Source of the DNA: Bacteroidales bacterium
Lineage (GTDB): Bacteria > Bacteroidota > Bacteroidia > Bacteroidales > ML635J-15
Direction of reading: 5' to 3'
Length of the DNA stretch: 50,540 nt
NCBI GenBank assembly: GCA_016937855.1
Contig: JAFGVU010000003.1
Location: 1-50,540, forward strand
Below are positions 57 to 47,016 of this stretch, one piece after another. Position 1 is the stretch's first letter, and each line of letters opens with the position of its first letter. Below the pieces are notes generated by a model that saw nothing but the letters and a program-made list of their open reading frames with translations, made no database searches and was not told the DNA's origin. Position numbers and translations under genes: made by a program.

Positions 57-773
57 CTATTGAAGCTGATAAAATTGTCTCGAAGCCACCGTAATCAAAA
101 CCACTACAGTCCCAACAATTGCAGCAATAAATACAATGTTTGAGTTTCCGTGCTGTTTAATAGCAATTCCAATAAAAGCCCAAATAACTGCTAAGGCAAT
201 AAATGGGTTGTTAAATCTGAACACCGCTGCAATGGCAATTAAAAGTCCGGTACTTATTAATATTATTGTCCATATTTCGTGTGCCATGCCAAAAGATGAC
301 CAGTTGAGACTAACCAACCAAACGGTTATATTTGCTATTGTTGCGATACAAATCCAGCCTAAATAAATTCCAAATGCTGCTTTGAAGATTCCGTTTGGAG
401 TGCTACTAAGCTTTTGGTTAATTATTGTCAGAGACGCAAGTAGTAACAACATGATTAAAACCGATAATCCAAACTTTTCGTAATGCCAAGCAAATATCCA
501 TAAACTGTTTAATGCCGAACTTATGATGAAAAACCATGAAACTTTCTGCAGAACTTCTTTGTTCCCGTCAAAGAAAAACATAACGCTTACAATTCCTAAA
601 AGCAGATAAATAACTCCCCATATCGAAAATGTTATTCCCGCAGGAGCAAAAAGATTTGGGTAAGCGTTAGAAACTGCTCCCGTAGATAAACCGTTTATTG
701 GTAAGGAATTTGCCAAATAATTAACGTAAATCATCACGACAAATAATAAAGCACTTAAAATTTTTAACATCAT
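57..773 (-). CDS. TspO/MBR-like tryptophan-rich membrane protein
   Basis: This is a hydrophobic protein of about 238 residues with six or seven predicted membrane segments. It resembles the Bacteroidetes tryptophan-rich sensory (TspO/MBR-like) family. The supporting signature is the stretch FAPAGITFSIWGVIYLLL after the first helix, with scattered Trp residues (WIFAWHYE, WLVSLNW). TspO proteins bind porphyrins or other hydrophobic ligands in the membrane, but the ligand here is unknown. An in-frame TTG extends the frame by ten codons. I prefer the double ATG at 768-773, because the reading from there begins directly with a typical hydrophobic N-terminus. It stands alone, with a 16-bp palindrome 66 bp upstream. 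Family assignment is moderately sure; role is not. Confidence 0.65.
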   Translation of the reverse strand: MMLKILSALLFVVMIYVNYLANSLPINGLSTGAVSNAYPNLFAPAGITFSIWGVIYLLLGIVSVMFFFDGNKEVLQKVSWFFIISSALNSLWIFAWHYEKFGLSVLIMLLLLASLTIINQKLSSTPNGIFKAAFGIYLGWICIATIANITVWLVSLNWSSFGMAHEIWTIILISTGLLIAIAAVFRFNNPFIALAVIWAFIGIAIKQHGNSNIVFIAAIVGTVVVLITVASRQFYQLQ

Positions 774-838
774 GGCTATATTTTTTATTATGCAATTTAA
801 CAATTTTTATTTGATTTTGTAAATCTAAAATGATCTGT

Positions 839-854
839 GAATTTCTAGAAATTC
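839..854. repeat. 16-bp perfect palindrome upstream of the TspO-like gene
   Basis: GAATTTCTAGAAATTC reads identically on both strands. It lies 66 bp before the preferred start of the minus-strand TspO-like gene. It could be an operator half-site pair or chance in AT-rich DNA; nothing else in the sequence decides. Confidence 0.4.
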
Positions 855-923
855 AATGTAAATATTATGACAATTGAATGAGTTTGTTAAATGACTGAAA
901 TACAGTGGTATAGATATTGTTTA

Positions 924-1039
924 GTCGTAAAGTCGGGGCATAAAATGTAAAAATCTGTCGTAAAGTCGGGGCATGAAATGCGAAAAGATGTCGTAAAGAC
1001 GGGGCATAAAATGCGAAAAACTGTCGTAAAGTCGGGGAG
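924..1039. repeat. 33-bp direct repeat array, left flank of ATPase gene (four copies)
   Basis: The core GTCGTAAAGTCGGGGC recurs at 924, 957, 990 and 1023, an exact 33-bp period. The rest of each unit (aTGAAATGCGAAAAACT-like) is also conserved, so there are no unique spacers. The last copy is partial. The array lies just past the 3' end of the minus-strand ATPase gene (stop at 1071). The same unit, in the same orientation, occurs on the other side of that gene at 2462. The period is close to three helical turns. Confidence 0.9.
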
Positions 1040-1070
1040 TGAGGATTGAAATTATTGAGTAAGCCAATTA

Positions 1071-2390
1071 TTATTCTGCTAGTTCTGAGAATAAATTATC
1101 AATTGCATAAATAGGATATGTTTTTATATTATCGAATTTATTGAAGTTTTCAAGTGAAACTCTTATCCCTTCTTGTTGTTTTTTTAGTTCCAGGAACATA
1201 AACAGACTTTGCATTTTGCCTTGGAGACCGGATTTAACCTCGATAGGAATTATATTATTGTTTTTTTCAACGATGTAGTCCACTTCAGCATTACTTCCTT
1301 TTTTTTCTCTATGCCAATAGAATAATTCAGGTTTTGTAAATGTGTGACAAGTTTTTATAAATTCGAGTCCGGCATATTGTTCAACAATATTTCCCTTGTT
1401 AATCATTTTTAAATCCTCAGCTATCATAAAATCTGCTGTTTTAAACTGCAAAGCTCGTTGCAATAATCCTGTATCAAAGAATATCACTTTAAATTTGCTT
1501 TCGTTTATTTCTGCAGCCAAAGGGATTCCATTTGCTGATGAATGAAATACTTTATAGCATAATCCGGCCATAACAAGCATCTCTAGAGTTTCCTTTTTCT
1601 GAGCGAAATTGCCGCTAGGTGATGAAGTTGTTACGTTAAATTTGTTGCCAGTTTGGTGTAATATTGATAAATATACATCTTTTAGTCGTGATGTATTTGC
1701 CCTTTTTTTATATTTTACGAAATCATCTTCGAAGGAAAGGATTATATCATCAAGAACTCTTTGTGTCCTAATAAGATCGCCGGTTTTAAAAAATTTATCA
1801 ACAGCTTCAGGCATTCCTCCGATTACTAGGAATTTGATGAACCATTCTTTAAGCATTTTGTGAAATACAGGGTCCAAAGGTCTTATCGGAGATGCCTCTT
1901 TTTTAATCTTTACTAAATTGTCGAGATTTGCAGCTTTTAGGAATTCGTTAAACGATAAAGGATACATAAACATTGAGCGTATTCTGCCTACTCCAAAAGA
2001 AGTTAATTCTCCAAAGGCAAATTCAAGTAATGATCCGGCCGCAATTACATGCAAATTTGGTCTCTTTTCGTAAAAGAACCTGAGACTTTGAATTGCTTCG
2101 GGGCAGGCTTGTATTTCGTCAAAAAATAAAAGTGTTTTTCCATCTGTTATGGGCTTATTAAAGTATCCTGTTAGTTTTAAGCAAATGTTTTCAGGCGTAA
2201 GACTACCATAAAAAAATGTCTTTACTTCAGGCTCAAGCTCAAAATTTACTTCAACATAATTGGAAAAACTTTTACCAAGCTGTCTTACAATCCAGGTTTT
2301 TCCAACTTGACGTGCTCCACGCAGAAGTAATGGCTTATGACTTTCGTAATTTTTCCACTTTACTAACTCTTCAAATATTTCTCTTTCCAT
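1071..2390 (-). CDS. AAA+ ATPase with DUF4143 and PD-(D/E)XK-like C-terminus
   Basis: This 439-residue protein is of the AAA_14/DUF4143 type. The Walker A motif is GARQVGKT (residues 25-32) and the Walker B motif is LLFFDEIQ (about 86-93). The DUF4143 region follows from about residue 200. The C-terminus carries EVDYI with Asp371 and then IEVK with Glu384 and Lys386, matching the D-x(n)-E-x-K metal site of PD-(D/E)XK nuclease-like folds. Nuclease activity is inference. The cellular role of this common bacterial and archaeal family is not established. A -7 element at 2412-2419 precedes the ATG. Direct repeats of one 33-bp unit lie on both sides, so the gene looks like a cassette within an array. 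Confidence 0.85.
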   Translation of the reverse strand: MEREIFEELVKWKNYESHKPLLLRGARQVGKTWIVRQLGKSFSNYVEVNFELEPEVKTFFYGSLTPENICLKLTGYFNKPITDGKTLLFFDEIQACPEAIQSLRFFYEKRPNLHVIAAGSLLEFAFGELTSFGVGRIRSMFMYPLSFNEFLKAANLDNLVKIKKEASPIRPLDPVFHKMLKEWFIKFLVIGGMPEAVDKFFKTGDLIRTQRVLDDIILSFEDDFVKYKKRANTSRLKDVYLSILHQTGNKFNVTTSSPSGNFAQKKETLEMLVMAGLCYKVFHSSANGIPLAAEINESKFKVIFFDTGLLQRALQFKTADFMIAEDLKMINKGNIVEQYAGLEFIKTCHTFTKPELFYWHREKKGSNAEVDYIVEKNNNIIPIEVKSGLQGKMQSLFMFLELKKQQEGIRVSLENFNKFDNIKTYPIYAIDNLFSELAE

Positions 2391-2411
2391 ACGATAAAAA
2401 ATATTGTTTTA

Positions 2412-2419
2412 CAAATATA
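2412..2419 (-). promoter_or_regulatory. -7 promoter element of the AAA ATPase gene
   Basis: TATATTTG on the minus strand fits the Bacteroidetes TAnnTTTG consensus, about 22 bp before the ATG at 2390. The right-hand repeat array lies upstream of it. Confidence 0.5.
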
Positions 2420-2461
2420 ATATAAAATTCAATAAAATCAATACTTTTAATATATAAATCT

Positions 2462-2536
2462 GTCGTAAAGTCAGGGCATGAAATGAAAATATCTGTCGTA
2501 AAGTCGGGGCATGAAATGCGAAAAACTGTCGTAAAG
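2462..2536. repeat. 33-bp direct repeat array, right flank of ATPase gene (three copies)
   Basis: GTCGTAAAG recurs at 2462, 2495 and 2528 with an exact 33-bp period, and the third copy is truncated. The unit and orientation are the same as in the array at 924-1039. The two arrays therefore bracket the ATPase gene as direct repeats. This array lies upstream of the gene's promoter. Confidence 0.9.
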
Positions 2537-2649
2537 TCTGCTCAAACATATTTGGGCATAAATTTTAGTTAGCATTTCCAAAATAGTTTATCAATGCTTG
2601 TAAATTCATCTTTGAAGTCTTATATTGCAAAAAATTTATTTTCAAAAAA

Positions 2650-3237
2650 ATGTCCGAATTACAAACATATAATCTTCCCGATAAATGCTTATTTGACGGA
2701 AAAGGCAACGAGATAATAGTTTGGCAGCCCGATAAAACCTATATTATTCTTGGCCAGCGTGATAATATTGAGGATGCTGTCGAAATGGAATCAGCAAAAT
2801 CAGAAAATGCTGTAATTATGCAGCGCCCAAGTGGAGGACATTCCGTTGTGCTAACTCAAAAAACTATAATTGTTTCGATGATTTCTTATGAGCATGATTT
2901 AACTGCTATCAAATCGTTTTTTTACAATTGCAATATGAAAATCATCACAGCTCTTCAAAAGCAAAATGTCGAAGGTCTTAGCATTCAGGGAATATCCGAC
3001 ATAGTTTTAAATGGTAAAAAGATTGTTGGTTCATCAATGTATAAAGGTAAAGATTTTTTATTTTTTCATGCCGTTGTAAATCTCGCCGAAAGTCCAAAAT
3101 ATATTGCTCAATTTCTAAAACATCCTAAAACTGAACCAGAGTATCGCAAAAATCGTAAGCACGAGGAATTTATTACATCGCTTGCCGAACAAGGCTATGA
3201 TGTTAATGTCGATAGTTTTAAAGAGTGTTTGGTCTGA
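2650..3237 (+). CDS. Lipoate/biotin protein ligase-like protein (short)
   Basis: This is a 195-residue protein of the BPL/LplA/LipB cofactor-ligase fold. RPSGGHSVVL (from Arg59) matches the R(R/P)xxGG(G/H) adenylate-binding segment. DIVLNGKKIVGSSMYKG (Lys123-Lys124) matches the conserved ligase segment with its catalytic lysine, and a His follows in FFHAVVN. LplA enzymes attach lipoate to E2 and H proteins; gcvT, another part of the glycine cleavage system, lies 29 kb away. At 195 residues it lacks the C-terminal accessory domain of full LplA. It may therefore act only as a transferase or on an unusual substrate. The ATG is clear. Fold is sure; substrate is not. Confidence 0.75.
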   Translation: MSELQTYNLPDKCLFDGKGNEIIVWQPDKTYIILGQRDNIEDAVEMESAKSENAVIMQRPSGGHSVVLTQKTIIVSMISYEHDLTAIKSFFYNCNMKIITALQKQNVEGLSIQGISDIVLNGKKIVGSSMYKGKDFLFFHAVVNLAESPKYIAQFLKHPKTEPEYRKNRKHEEFITSLAEQGYDVNVDSFKECLV

Positions 3238-3277: not shown

Positions 3278-4066
3278 ATGTGGAGTCAGCTTAATACATA
3301 TCGTAATAAATATTTAAAACTTAATTTGGATCAGGTTATTGATTACGAAAAGTTCAGTATGATTTCCATTGTCTATCATTCTACAAAAATCGAAGGTTGT
3401 TCGCTAACCGAAACCGACACCAAGGTTTTGCTTGATAAAGATATTACCGCAAATGGAAAACCATTGATAGATCATTTAATGGTTAAAGATCATTATGCAG
3501 CATTTATGTTTTTGAAAGATCAGGCCGCAGCAAAACGAACTCTATCATTGGAATTTCTTAAAGAAACCGAATCAATACTAATGAAGAATACCGGGACCAT
3601 AGTTAATTCAGTGGCAGGAACTTTCAATACAGCAAAAGGAGATTTCTGACTTGCTCAGGTTTATGTTGAAAAAAAGTACTTTCCTGATTACAAAAAAGTT
3701 CCTGATTTGATATTAAATTTGATCAATTATGTCAACTCTTCATAGGTTAAGATTAAAGATCAAAATGAAATATTAAAACTTTCTACCGATGTGCACTATA
3801 ATCTTGTAAATATTCATCCTTTTGCTGATGGAAATGGTAGGTTGTCAAGATTATTTATGAATTATATTTTGATGTATCACAATCAGCCATTTGTAAAAAT
3901 ATTTACTGAGGATTGTGCACAATATATTAACGCACTAAATTTAACCGAAGAGAAATCAGATCCCGAAATATTTAGAAGTTTTATTGCATCACAACAGATT
4001 AAATTCTTCAAAAATGAAATCGAAAAATATCAAAAAATTGAAAAAGGCTTCAATTTAATGTTTTAG
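3278..4066 (+). pseudogene. Fic family protein, interrupted by two in-frame stops
   Basis: A single frame runs from the ATG at 3278 to the TAA ending at 4066 (263 codons) and is broken by TGA at 3647-3649 and TAG at 3743-3745. The protein matches Fic AMP-transferases all along. SIVYHSTKIEG carries the (S/T)xxxE(G/N) inhibitory motif. VKDHYAAF and FPDYKKVPDL are typical of the family, and the intact catalytic HPFADGNGR is encoded at 3815-3841. Between the two stops the frame reads on as normal Fic sequence. The first stop sits after GDF, where the family usually has Arg, which fits CGA to TGA; the second fits CAG to TAG. This looks like recent inactivation or sequencing error rather than frameshift. 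Confidence 0.85.
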
Positions 4067-27188: not shown

Positions 27189-27214
27189 GTAAAAATTTTA
27201 AGATGGGGAAAAAA

Positions 27215-27258
27215 AAGTACTTAGAGTGCCTAAAGTGCCTAAAGTGCCTAAAGTACTT
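27215..27258. repeat. 9-bp tandem repeat block bounded by AAGTACTT
   Basis: Units of the form (A/G)AGTGCCTA repeat with a 9-bp period. The block begins at 27215 and ends at 27258 with the palindrome AAGTACTT. A related block occurs about 100 bp further right. Confidence 0.85.
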
Positions 27259-27364
27259 AATAGGAATTTTTTATTTTAATGCTTATAGACTTTGCATTGC
27301 CGACTTGCAGTGCTTCTATAAATTGATAATTGTTTTGGAGGCAATGTAAACGTCGGTAAGAAGT

Positions 27365-27670: not shown

Positions 27671-28906
27671 ATGGTAAGCATCGAAAGTCTAAAAAAGATT
27701 ATAATTGAAAGTCGTGACTATGTGCAGTCACTGTCTTTTAAGGATAGAAATTTTGAATTTGAGAAAAATGCAAATTATGTGTTTGTAGGAATGCGTCGTG
27801 CAGGTAAAACCTTTTTGATTTATAATTTGATTAAAGACAGGGCTCGCGAAGACTTTCTTTACATAAATTTTGAGGACGAGAGGTTGATGGAATTTGAAGT
27901 CGCTGACTTTGATCTTTTACTTGAAGCATATAATCAACTGTTTAGTAAAAAACCAGCAATTTATTTTGATGAAATTCAGAATATTTTAGGATGGGAGAAG
28001 TTTTGTAGGCGTTTGGCGGATTTTGGTTACGAGATTTCAATAACTGGAAGTAATGCAAGCATGCTATCACGTGAAATTGCGTCAACTCTTGGCGGACGAT
28101 TTATTGTAAAAGAAATTCAGGCTCTGTCGTTTGCAGAATTTCTATTTTTCAACGGTGTTAAGCTAGCCGATAATTTTGAGTACGGCAAGCAAAAATCAGA
28201 AGTTGTTAGATTTATGGATGAGTATATGCATTATGGTGGATTGCCTGAGTGCATAAAATATAATGACAAAAGGAATTATCTAAGTAATATTTTTCAGAAA
28301 GTTTTTTTCGGTGATATTATTGCAAGATACAAACTTAAGAATGAATTTGCACTTAGGTTGTTGATTAAAAAAATGGCCGAATCTGTAAATAACGAAACAT
28401 CGTTTAACCGAATAAAAAACATTTTGAATTCGTCGAATGCCAAAGTCGGGACAGGAACTTTAATTGAATATTTTGGCTATCTCGAAGAATCTTTTCTGGT
28501 TTTTAGCATTACAAATTTTACTGCAAAGTTTGCCGAAAAGGAATCCAAAAAGAAGTTTTATTTTGCTGATACAGGAATATTAAATCTATTCTTGATTGAC
28601 CAGAAATCTAAACTGTTGGAGAATCTAGTATATATTGAGTTGCGCAGAAGATTTCAGTCGGAAATTTACTTTTACAAACGAATAATAGAAACAGACTTCT
28701 ACATCCCTGATCATAACTTGTTAATTCAGGTTTGTATATCGGTTAAGGATTACGAAACAAGAGAACGAGAGTTGAAATCGCTTAAATATTCGATGCGAGA
28801 ACTTAAGGTAAATAAATCTATGATTATTACCTATGATGAGCAGGAAAAAATTGAAATTGCTGAGGGTGAAATTGAGCTTATTCCTTATTGGAAGTGGGTG
28901 TTGTAA
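27671..28906 (+). CDS. AAA+ ATPase with DUF4143, second subfamily
   Basis: This 411-residue protein has Walker A GMRRAGKT (40-47), Walker B AIYFDEIQN (about 98-106) and the arginine/serine sensor segment ISITGSNASML. A DUF4143 C-terminal half follows. The C-terminus reads TDFYIPDHNLLIQVCISV and keeps the fold seen in the ATPase at 1071, but the E-x-K pair is replaced (QVC), so a nuclease site is probably lost. The cellular role is unknown. It is distant from the other ATPase in sequence. It is also surrounded by low-complexity repeats: 9-bp units upstream and 7-bp units immediately downstream. Confidence 0.88.
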   Translation: MVSIESLKKIIIESRDYVQSLSFKDRNFEFEKNANYVFVGMRRAGKTFLIYNLIKDRAREDFLYINFEDERLMEFEVADFDLLLEAYNQLFSKKPAIYFDEIQNILGWEKFCRRLADFGYEISITGSNASMLSREIASTLGGRFIVKEIQALSFAEFLFFNGVKLADNFEYGKQKSEVVRFMDEYMHYGGLPECIKYNDKRNYLSNIFQKVFFGDIIARYKLKNEFALRLLIKKMAESVNNETSFNRIKNILNSSNAKVGTGTLIEYFGYLEESFLVFSITNFTAKFAEKESKKKFYFADTGILNLFLIDQKSKLLENLVYIELRRRFQSEIYFYKRIIETDFYIPDHNLLIQVCISVKDYETRERELKSLKYSMRELKVNKSMIITYDEQEKIEIAEGEIELIPYWKWVL

Positions 28907-28920
28907 GTGGTGGCTTCGAC

Positions 28921-29075
28921 AAACTCAAAACTCAAAACTCAAAACTCAAAACTCAAAACTCAAAACTCAAAACTCAAAACTCAAAACCTCTAAATTCTAA
29001 AACCTAAATCAAAACGTTAAACTCAGAGCTCAAAACTCTCAAAACTCAAAACTCCGCACTTAAAACTCCGCACTT
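28921..29075. repeat. 7-bp microsatellite CAAAACT, degenerate at its right end
   Basis: CAAAACT repeats with a 7-bp period from 28921 to about 28987 (roughly nine copies). It is followed by scattered variants (AAAACTC, CCGCACT) to about 29075. It fills the space between the ATPase stop and the convergent outer-membrane protein gene. A 7-bp unit is prone to slippage, so copy number should vary among strains. Confidence 0.9.
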
Positions 29076-46788: not shown

Positions 46789-46902
46789 CTTTAGTTTCGT
46801 TTTTGATTCAGCAATATAAACTGTAAAAATACAAAAAATATTGTTTTGGGGATGTTAATACAATTAGGTGGAAAGATGTCGTTTATTGCAGGAATTTATA
46901 TT

Positions 46903-47016
46903 TATCTCCAAAAAAGTGTAAAATTGACAAAATTTATCTCCAAAAAAGTGTAAAATTATTCAAAATTATCTCCAAAAAAGTGTAAAAAAATACAAAATTA
47001 TCTCCAAAAAAGTGTA
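46903..47016. repeat. 32-bp direct repeat array (four copies)
   Basis: TATCTCCAAAAAAGTGTA recurs at 46903, 46935, 46967 and 46999, an exact 32-bp period. The short linkers between cores are A/T-rich and similar. The array lies between the minus-strand amidase gene (stop at 47027) and the DUF4173-type gene (start at 46788). No ATPase gene is adjacent. Its core CAAAAAAGT differs by one base from CAAAATAGT in the pair at 10819-10880. Confidence 0.92.

What the first reader, a model, noticed from the sequence alone, without database searches (positions are those of the whole stretch)
924..2536. AAA ATPase with PD-(D/E)XK-like motif enclosed by two same-orientation arrays of one 33-bp repeat
Four copies on one side and three on the other share unit, phase and orientation, with an exact 33-bp period, and only the ATPase gene lies between them. 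This could be a cassette inserted in an older array, or an array that the ATPase recognises. The ATPase keeps a D-x12-E-x-K set in its C-terminal part, so DNA cutting is conceivable. Direct arrays could also recombine and delete the gene. I know of no described system of this form, but cannot search.
Basis: partly seen in the sequence, partly recalled or inferred. Interest (0 to 1): 0.7.

Follow-up and report, generated by a model that had tools for sequence, protein, structure and literature searches.

The report
Defence-type ATPase with conserved repeat arrays
A very common but uncharacterised family of bacterial ATPase-nuclease genes, suspected of fighting viruses, carries its own set of evenly spaced 33-letter DNA repeats at its promoter; the spacing is kept across distant bacteria while the letters change, which points to a built-in control site that travels with the gene.

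Summary
Confirmed: 924-1040 and 2456-2538 are same-orientation arrays of one exact 33-bp unit around a single gene, a 439-aa AAA_14-DUF4143 ATPase (1071-2390, minus strand). The literal unit was found nowhere else in this genome or in 60 relatives.

The layout recurs. Upstream of homologous ATPases (n=64, window included, about 30% identity or more) the best self-similarity lag is exactly 33 in 49 and 64-67 in 6; neighbour genes 2/74, shuffles 15/640. Units differ but share a core and track the protein. Period 32/33 recurs in other phyla; other DUF4143 clades favour 32, 29 or 22-24. Best reading: a cognate operator/iteron array, probably bound by the ATPase itself (Cdc6/Orc- and STAND-like fold plus PD-(D/E)XK motif).

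Two congeneric genomes have tspO-lplA adjacent without ATPase or array, so "inserted in an older array" is not supported. Direct repeats flank 28/94 DUF4143 genes and 0/153 others. Solo arrays exist; one is best read as a deletion scar.

The family is PADLOC's PDC-S01 candidate; my searches found no description of the arrays. Binding, autorepression and mobility are inferred.

The parts
2456..2538 (-). upstream (promoter-side) array: 3 copies of the 33-bp unit, core in gene orientation ATGCCC(C/T)GACTTTACGAC, the copy farthest from the gene partial
   Evidence: self-similarity lag 33, score 41.4
2412..2419 (-). Bacteroidota-type -7 box TATATTTG (TAnnTTTG) between the array and the start codon; 36 nt separate it from the array here
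   Evidence: sequence; 43 of 55 clade loci have TAnnTTTG in -100..-5, against 11% after shuffling. The consensus itself is recalled.
1071..2390 (-). 439-aa AAA_14 + DUF4143 ATPase, PADLOC candidate defence family PDC-S01; Walker A GARQVGKT at 25-32, D91-E92, C-terminal D371/E384/K386
   Evidence: AlphaFold2 model pLDDT 84.6, pTM 0.86
924..1040 (-). downstream array: 4 copies of the same 33-bp unit, same orientation, the copy at 1023 partial
   Evidence: aligns with the upstream array at 89% over 90 bp
804..923 (.). left flank of the cassette; with 2539-2649 it makes 231 nt, against 236 nt in the empty site of G019
   Evidence: alignment too weak to fix the ends to the base
2539..2649 (.). right flank of the cassette
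57..803 (-). TspO/MBR-family neighbour, adjacent to lplA in the empty site (82% aa identity in L153)
2650..3237 (+). lipoate-protein-ligase-family neighbour (83% aa identity in L153)

Best explanation
The 33-bp array is the cognate operator (iteron-like) array of this ATPase clade and travels with the gene. Each unit is an oriented site whose conserved part spans about 20 bp; units lie about three helical turns apart, just upstream of or overlapping the core promoter. I infer that the ATPase, an AAA+ protein with a Cdc6/Orc- and STAND-like fold plus a PD-(D/E)XK-type domain, binds one protomer per unit on one face of the DNA and represses its own promoter, so that a potentially harmful single-gene defence protein stays low until needed. 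At this locus the 1.6-kb cassette carries a second array behind the gene. Shown: period, position, core, co-divergence with the protein, presence/absence between relatives, arrays left without a gene. Inferred: that the ATPase is the binder, that the effect is repression, that the protein is a defence factor.
For: Clade n=64 (window included): mean lag score 24.6 at 33 and 13.4 at 66, against 3.2-5.6 at the other lags; best lag 33 in 49, 64-67 in 6; neighbour ORFs 2/74 at 33. At 70% redundancy 40 of 53, shuffles 15/640. Of 28 testable homologs about 47% identical or more (window included) 21 have best lag 33, 1 has 32, 4 have 65-66. Unit consensus from 56 of the 64 (lag-33 score 9 or more): 12.2 bits against 6.0 (max 6.8) for shuffled units. 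Unit similarity tracks protein identity, r 0.35, p 0.001, n=55. A -7 box in 43 of 55, in 24 of these starting -1 to +16 bp from the array's end. Period 32/33 or its double as best lag with score 14 or more in 12 of 19 plasmid, phage-record and viral-contig loci, among them Chlamydiota, Fusobacteriota, Actinomycetota and Pasteurellales. Own genome: upstream arrays at 12 of 24 DUF4143 genes (11 of 23 plus the window gene) against 4 of 107 other genes. An array model built from 31 arrays: of its 30 fetched loci 14 were not used for building, and 8 of these have an intact ATPase directly downstream. Fold: 2qen Z 15.7; Cdc6/Orc1 on origin DNA second and third by Foldseek, at low TM-score 0.26-0.30.
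Against: No binding or expression data. Co-divergence of unit and protein also follows from joint inheritance, and no protein segment correlates with the unit beyond the whole protein (partial r -0.13 to 0.08). Clade units are mostly not palindromic (4 of 56 with z above 2). The -7 box lies inside the array in 11 of 43 and more than 16 bp beyond it in 8, the window (36 nt apart) being of the latter kind. Same-unit downstream arrays, as here, are rare in the clade and not explained by simple repression. Solo arrays persist without an ATPase in the fetched loci of G005, G016 and G023. 9 of 64 clade members show no 33-type lag; 7 of 19 loci do not either. The defence label is a database candidate without an assay.
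Confidence: 0.62

Rival explanations
1. The arrays are the ends or attachment sites of a single-gene mobile element: the ATPase-nuclease acts on arrays so that the cassette is inserted, excised or spread by recombination between direct repeats.
For: Same-unit arrays on both sides here and at L020, L022, L139 and (other clade, period 22) L077; flanking direct repeats at 28/94 DUF4143 loci against 3/94 inverted and 0 of 153 other genes; duplication of neighbour-gene ends across the ATPase at L006, L085, L112; empty sites; solo arrays.
Against: In this clade clear same-unit arrays on both sides were seen at only 4 loci (L081 = window, L020, L022, L139), three of them in this one genome (L107 has related TTTGTG repeats on both sides, not counted). 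The long duplications are of host DNA, not arrays. The one resolved loss (G188) kept the array plus the last codons of the ATPase, so it was not array-to-array recombination. The one pair of identical copies that I followed (G024 contig 42) is identical over all 4,477 bp fetched, flanking genes included, so it shows no movement of the cassette; I looked for no other pairs.
Confidence: 0.2
2. [quoted passage not shown]
For: RptR precedent (PMC12255303, abstract and passages); array at the promoter.
Against: Units differ from locus to locus and track the ATPase; several different arrays coexist in one genome. No other gene lies in the cassette here; I did not tabulate neighbours at the other loci.
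Confidence: 0.2
3. Relic replicon: the ATPase descends from, or still acts as, an Orc/Rep-like initiator and the array is an origin.
For: Initiator-like fold; iteron-like oriented repeats beside the gene.
Against: 24 matches in one genome and up to 53 in a relative; conserved nuclease-type residues; nothing shows replication.
Confidence: 0.06
4. Neutral tandem duplication near a promoter.
For: The literal unit is confined to this locus.
Against: The period is conserved to the base in most clade members, and within one base in other phyla, while sequences diverge.
Confidence: 0.03

Closest known systems
PADLOC candidate defence family PDC-S01 (AAA_14-DUF4143; COG1373 is my recalled label)
   Same: The protein matches PDC-S01 model PDLC04786 at E 7.6e-138 over residues 1-434; PDC-S01 is described as an ATPase fused to a PD-(D/E)XK member in PMC12988326 (passages).
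   Different: In the passages that I saw nothing is said of promoter arrays, fixed spacing or flanking repeats.
RptR-controlled defence islands (PMC12255303)
   Same: [quoted passage not shown] repression there is proven.
   Different: There a separate small HTH repressor binds 9-bp repeats with a conserved 6-bp palindrome; here the unit is 33 bp, differs between loci, and no separate regulator lies in the cassette.
Restriction-modification genes inserted with long target duplication (PMC3031569, passages; it cites Nobusato 2000)
   Same: A compact gene missing from a relative's site; long variable duplications flank some DUF4143 genes (L006, L085, L112).
   Different: No methylase; at the window locus the repeated DNA is the array, not a target.
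Archaeal ATPases 2qen and 2fna, Cdc6/Orc1 initiators
   Same: Predicted fold over residues 1-315; repeated oriented sites near the gene.
   Different: An added C-terminal nuclease-type domain; no evidence for an origin.

Membership tests
PDC-S01 / AAA_14-DUF4143 | sequence match over the whole protein | tested here: met
PDC-S01 / AAA_14-DUF4143 | anti-phage activity | not testable with these tools
   PMC12988326 passage: experimental validation pending for most PDCs
PD-(D/E)XK nucleases | conserved D...ExK set | tested here: met
   D371, E384, K386 invariant in the 10 sequences of A1 and the 9 of A2
PD-(D/E)XK nucleases | nuclease fold of the C-terminal domain | tested here: inconclusive
   155-residue model, pLDDT 64.7; no hit at E 0.001 or better; hits at E 2e-3 to 1e-2 include VC1899 (first), Bax1, McrBC, EcoT38I and Can2
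RptR-type direct-repeat operator | several direct repeats at the promoter of the locus | tested here: met
RptR-type direct-repeat operator | separate linked HTH repressor gene | tested here: not met
   the ATPase is the only gene-sized ORF in the cassette
Insertion with long target duplication | empty site in a relative | tested here: met
   L153 and L158; ends not resolved to the base
Insertion with long target duplication | duplicated host DNA on both sides of this insert | tested here: not met
   at the window only array units are repeated; duplicated neighbour-gene ends at L006, L085, L112
CRISPR array | identical repeats separated by unique spacers | tested here: not met
   the 33-bp unit repeats head to tail at 87-88% match
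IS element or transposon | terminal inverted repeats with a transposase | tested here: not met
   flanks are direct, not inverted (inverted score 9.1, direct 73.9); the only gene is AAA_14-DUF4143
Iteron replicon | autonomous replication from the array | not testable with these tools
   layout and fold only

The most novel reading that the evidence does not exclude
A single-gene selfish or defence element in which one ATPase-nuclease reads its own private array for two purposes: to silence itself at the promoter and to mark the ends by which the cassette is copied or moved, each lineage evolving a private array code while the three-turn spacing stays fixed.
Probability: 0.15. Interest if true: 0.88.

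Novelty: new variant of a known kind. Interest (0 to 1): 0.7.

Why it matters
PDC-S01 is reported as the fourth most common defence system in prokaryotes, with tests pending for most such candidates (PMC12988326, passages). A conserved, gene-specific array gives a concrete handle on how such a gene is controlled and what DNA it may see, and the dozens of natural protein-array pairs met here could be used to read out specificity. It also supplies a search signature for lost copies and a way to ask how such solitary genes spread.

Tried and rejected
Literal-unit searches: own genome 5 hits, all here; 0 of 60 relatives; exact 18-mer in genome contigs 2 hits, in Vibrio and Frankiaceae, taken as chance; viral contigs 0. 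These misled until I compared layout instead of letters.

Palindromic unit: attractive in L185/L186, L189 and L190, but only 4 of 56 clade units have z above 2, so rejected as a general rule. Region-specific coevolution: no signal. RNA-level function: no Rfam match in 800-2700, and in 32 of 43 loci the -7 box starts at or after the array's last base but one. Base-exact ends: alignment to the empty site scores 24 against a shuffled mean of 12.8 (sd 3.3, max 26), so not resolved. PDB by sequence: none at E 0.01. VIA-align rows cover residues 1-350. Solo array 46902-47016 against two period-32 units: 21 of 32 with L010 (null 95% 18), 17 with L011; not convincing. Identical ATPase pair in G024: identical over the whole 4,477 bp, so no sign of cassette movement. 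L157 (G021): tspO piece and lplA with about 1.4 kb of other DNA between, including a 431-bp tandem duplication, no ATPase, no array.

Rows dropped: L092 (upstream too short) and L110 (homology starts at residue 49); my Walker-A expression missed 24 held loci, of which 16 were recovered by match position (L091, L092, L100, L110, L122, L124, L129, L141) stay outside the n=64; L139 is outside it for short upstream DNA; L078 dropped as a duplicate protein, L016 counted through L081.

Papers: 'AAA_14' hit unrelated papers; 33-bp repeat phrases, 20 of 22 listed, none a bacterial system like this by title and abstract start; DUF4143 1 paper, COG1373 7, listings only; one search listed 12 of 59, all on 'DUF234', which also matches longer numbers, none relevant by title.

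Full report
OBSERVATION. The arrays are real: 924-1037 and 2456-2538 by TRF, period exactly 33, same unit and orientation. The only gene between them is a 439-aa AAA_14-DUF4143 ATPase on the minus strand, so the second array is on its promoter side and the first lies behind its stop codon. The literal unit is private to this locus: 5 hits in the own genome at up to 3 mismatches, all here, none in 60 relatives, none in viral contigs, and two exact 18-mers in unrelated genome contigs records.

FROM LETTERS TO LAYOUT. The own genome has 24 DUF4143 matches. Many have a tandem array of a different sequence just upstream of the start. Scored uniformly, 11 of 23 plus the window gene have an upstream array, with lags 32 (4), 33 (3 plus the window), 23 (2), 29 and 40, against 4 of 107 non-ATPase genes, whose lags were 16, 18, 21 and 52.

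HOMOLOGS. P0001 homologs at E 1e-60 or better were found in 111 of 295 genomes of the order, own genome included, in 85 of 183 genera. For the 28 testable best ones, window included (about 47% identity or more), the best self-similarity lag of the 170 bp upstream is 33 in 21, 32 in 1 and 65-66 in 4; two lack it. For the wider clade (n=64) it is 33 in 49 and 64-67 in 6; the mean lag profile has one sharp peak at 33 (24.6, other lags 3.2-5.6) and its harmonic at 66 (13.4). The 32 other DUF4143 genes peak at 32 (9.4), then 29 (5.9); 74 neighbour ORFs from the same loci show no such peak, 2 of 74 at 33. At 70% redundancy it is 40 of 53; dinucleotide shuffles give 15 of 640. Units from 56 of the 64 loci share the core TTTGCCTTGGATTTTT in gene orientation, 12.2 bits against 6.0 for shuffled units. 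Unit similarity follows protein identity (Mantel r 0.35, p 0.001, n=55); no protein segment stands out. In 43 of 55 loci a TAnnTTTG box lies in -100..-5 (11% after shuffling); in 24 it starts -1 to +16 bp from the array's end, in 11 inside the array, in 8 further downstream, the window among these. The array therefore mostly covers DNA upstream of or overlapping the core promoter, which argues for a DNA-level operator.

OTHER PHYLA. Of 19 plasmid, phage-record and viral-contig loci, 12 have best lag 32/33 or its double with score 14 or more: Segatella, Criblamydia (Chlamydiota), Fusobacterium, Collinsella (Actinomycetota), Parabacteroides, Glaesserella, one phage record and five IMG/VR loci (two with the same upstream sequence). 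Seven do not: Ruminococcus, Vibrio, a second Segatella (its period-33 array lies at -436..-321) and four viral contigs, two of them with the same upstream sequence. The 10 fetched records are my choice from 73 plasmid and 12 phage records.

THE PROTEIN. Walker A, D91-E92, R136 and D371/E384/K386 are invariant in 10 aligned homologs. The AlphaFold2 model (pLDDT 84.6, 9 sequences) matches 2qen (Z 15.7, 262 residues, rmsd 4.0), 2fna, and CED-4 and NLR STAND ATPases; Foldseek's second and third hits are Cdc6/Orc1 bound to origin DNA, at TM-scores of 0.26-0.30. The C-terminal domain alone (pLDDT 64.7) gives weak hits that include Bax1, McrBC, EcoT38I and Can2. PADLOC files the protein as PDC-S01, reported as the fourth most common defence system in prokaryotes, with tests pending for most such candidates (PMC12988326, passages only).

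GAIN OR LOSS AT THIS SITE. Of 8 lplA relatives in the genus read for this (L153-L160), two have tspO adjacent with no ATPase: G019 (lplA 83%, tspO 82% aa identity) and G012 (57% and 71%; its tspO reads as two ORFs). No array core is found in either gap. G021 has a tspO piece about 1.4 kb away with other DNA between and no ATPase; the other five show no tspO in the fetched flank. The joined window flanks measure 231 nt against 236 nt in G019, but the alignment is too weak to fix the ends. So the cassette came or went with its arrays; a cassette dropped into an older array is not supported.

ARRAYS WITHOUT A GENE. An array model from 31 arrays hits 157 of 295 genomes at E 0.01 (many weak hits may be chance). 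Of its 30 fetched loci 26 hold a DUF4143 ATPase or a piece of one. Of the 14 not used in building, 8 have an intact ATPase directly downstream (one, L216, is 99% like a training protein), L224 has a 66-aa ATPase remnant after the array, L206 has another-clade ATPase about 230 bp away, and L198, L211, L213 and L220 are solo arrays. For L198 the sister genome G324 has array-ATPase-ABC transporter gene (my label), where G188 has the array, the last codons of the ATPase, then the same gene at 87% DNA identity; I read this as a deletion. The L220 array lies without ATPase in the fetched loci of G005, G016 and G023, has one unit fewer in G014 and is absent in G022. In the own genome the three best model hits are the two L022 arrays and the window's upstream array.

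FLANKING REPEATS. Comparing 350 bp upstream with 400 bp downstream, 28 of 94 DUF4143 loci have a direct repeat (score 22 or more) against 3 of 94 in inverted sense. Of 165 control ORFs 3 pass, all 3 themselves DUF4143 genes; 12 of the 165 are DUF4143 genes, leaving 0 of 153. With 1.2-kb flanks it is 36 of 91; 14 of 91 also have inverted matches; controls 8 of 160, that is 4 of 11 DUF4143 genes and 4 of 149 others. Three kinds occur: array units on both sides (window, L020, L022, L139, L077); one site of about 30-41 bp before the gene and again within 75 bp of the stop codon (L053, L062, L079, L080, L056, L059, L060, L075, L007, L076); and duplicated host DNA, as where a piece of a neighbour gene lies across the ATPase from the intact gene (L112, L085, L006). 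The last kind recalls restriction-modification genes inserted with long target duplications (PMC3031569, passages).

MECHANISM. The most economical reading is a private operator/iteron array on which the ATPase assembles with three-turn spacing to silence its own promoter. The layout is shown; binding and repression are inferred. The downstream array here is either a second end of a mobile unit or a leftover of a tandem copy; I cannot tell which.

LITERATURE. In the PMC open library DUF4143 occurs in 1 paper, COG1373 in 7, PDC-S01 in 3; of the last I saw passages of two. 33-bp repeat phrases gave no matching bacterial system in the 20 of 22 listed. The closest functional precedent that I met is RptR (PMC12255303, abstract and passages). 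Subscription papers and preprints were not searchable, so 'not described' means only these searches.

Noticed in passing
window 46902-47016: Another intergenic array, period 32, 3.6 copies, with no ATPase beside it (upstream of a DUF4153 gene); possibly a scar like the solo arrays.
   Followed up: partly
window 27214-27260, 27671-28906, 28921-29075: A second DUF4143 ATPase in the window has 9/18-bp repeats (AAAGTGCCT) upstream and a 134-bp array of 7-bp units (AAACTCA) right after its stop codon.
   Followed up: partly
window 3278-4066: A Fic-family reading frame broken by stop codons, near the cassette.
   Followed up: no
L046 9966-10045: Solo period-32 array in the same genome, one gene away from a split DUF4143 ATPase (L014).
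   Followed up: partly
G000-G025: DUF4143 match number swings from 0 to 53 per genome within one genus.
   Followed up: no
L053, L062, L079, L080 and L056, L059, L060, L075: DUF4143 genes bracketed by one 29-41 bp, partly palindromic site at the promoter and again within 75 bp of the stop codon.
   Followed up: partly
L091 2063-3161: A 1.1-kb array of about 71-bp repeats upstream of a clade ATPase that also has the 33-bp array.
   Followed up: no
L102, L109, L119: 385 to 715 bp direct duplications (77-86% identical) flanking the ATPase; at L119 they look like tandem paralogous lipoprotein genes.
   Followed up: partly
L254, L255 (G024 contig 42): 4,477 bp identical in inverted orientation near the two ends of one contig, a DUF4143 gene included; a large inverted repeat or an assembly artefact.
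   Followed up: partly
L157 405-1282: A 431-bp unit in two nearly identical tandem copies between a tspO piece and lplA in G021, the site that holds the ATPase cassette in the window.
   Followed up: partly
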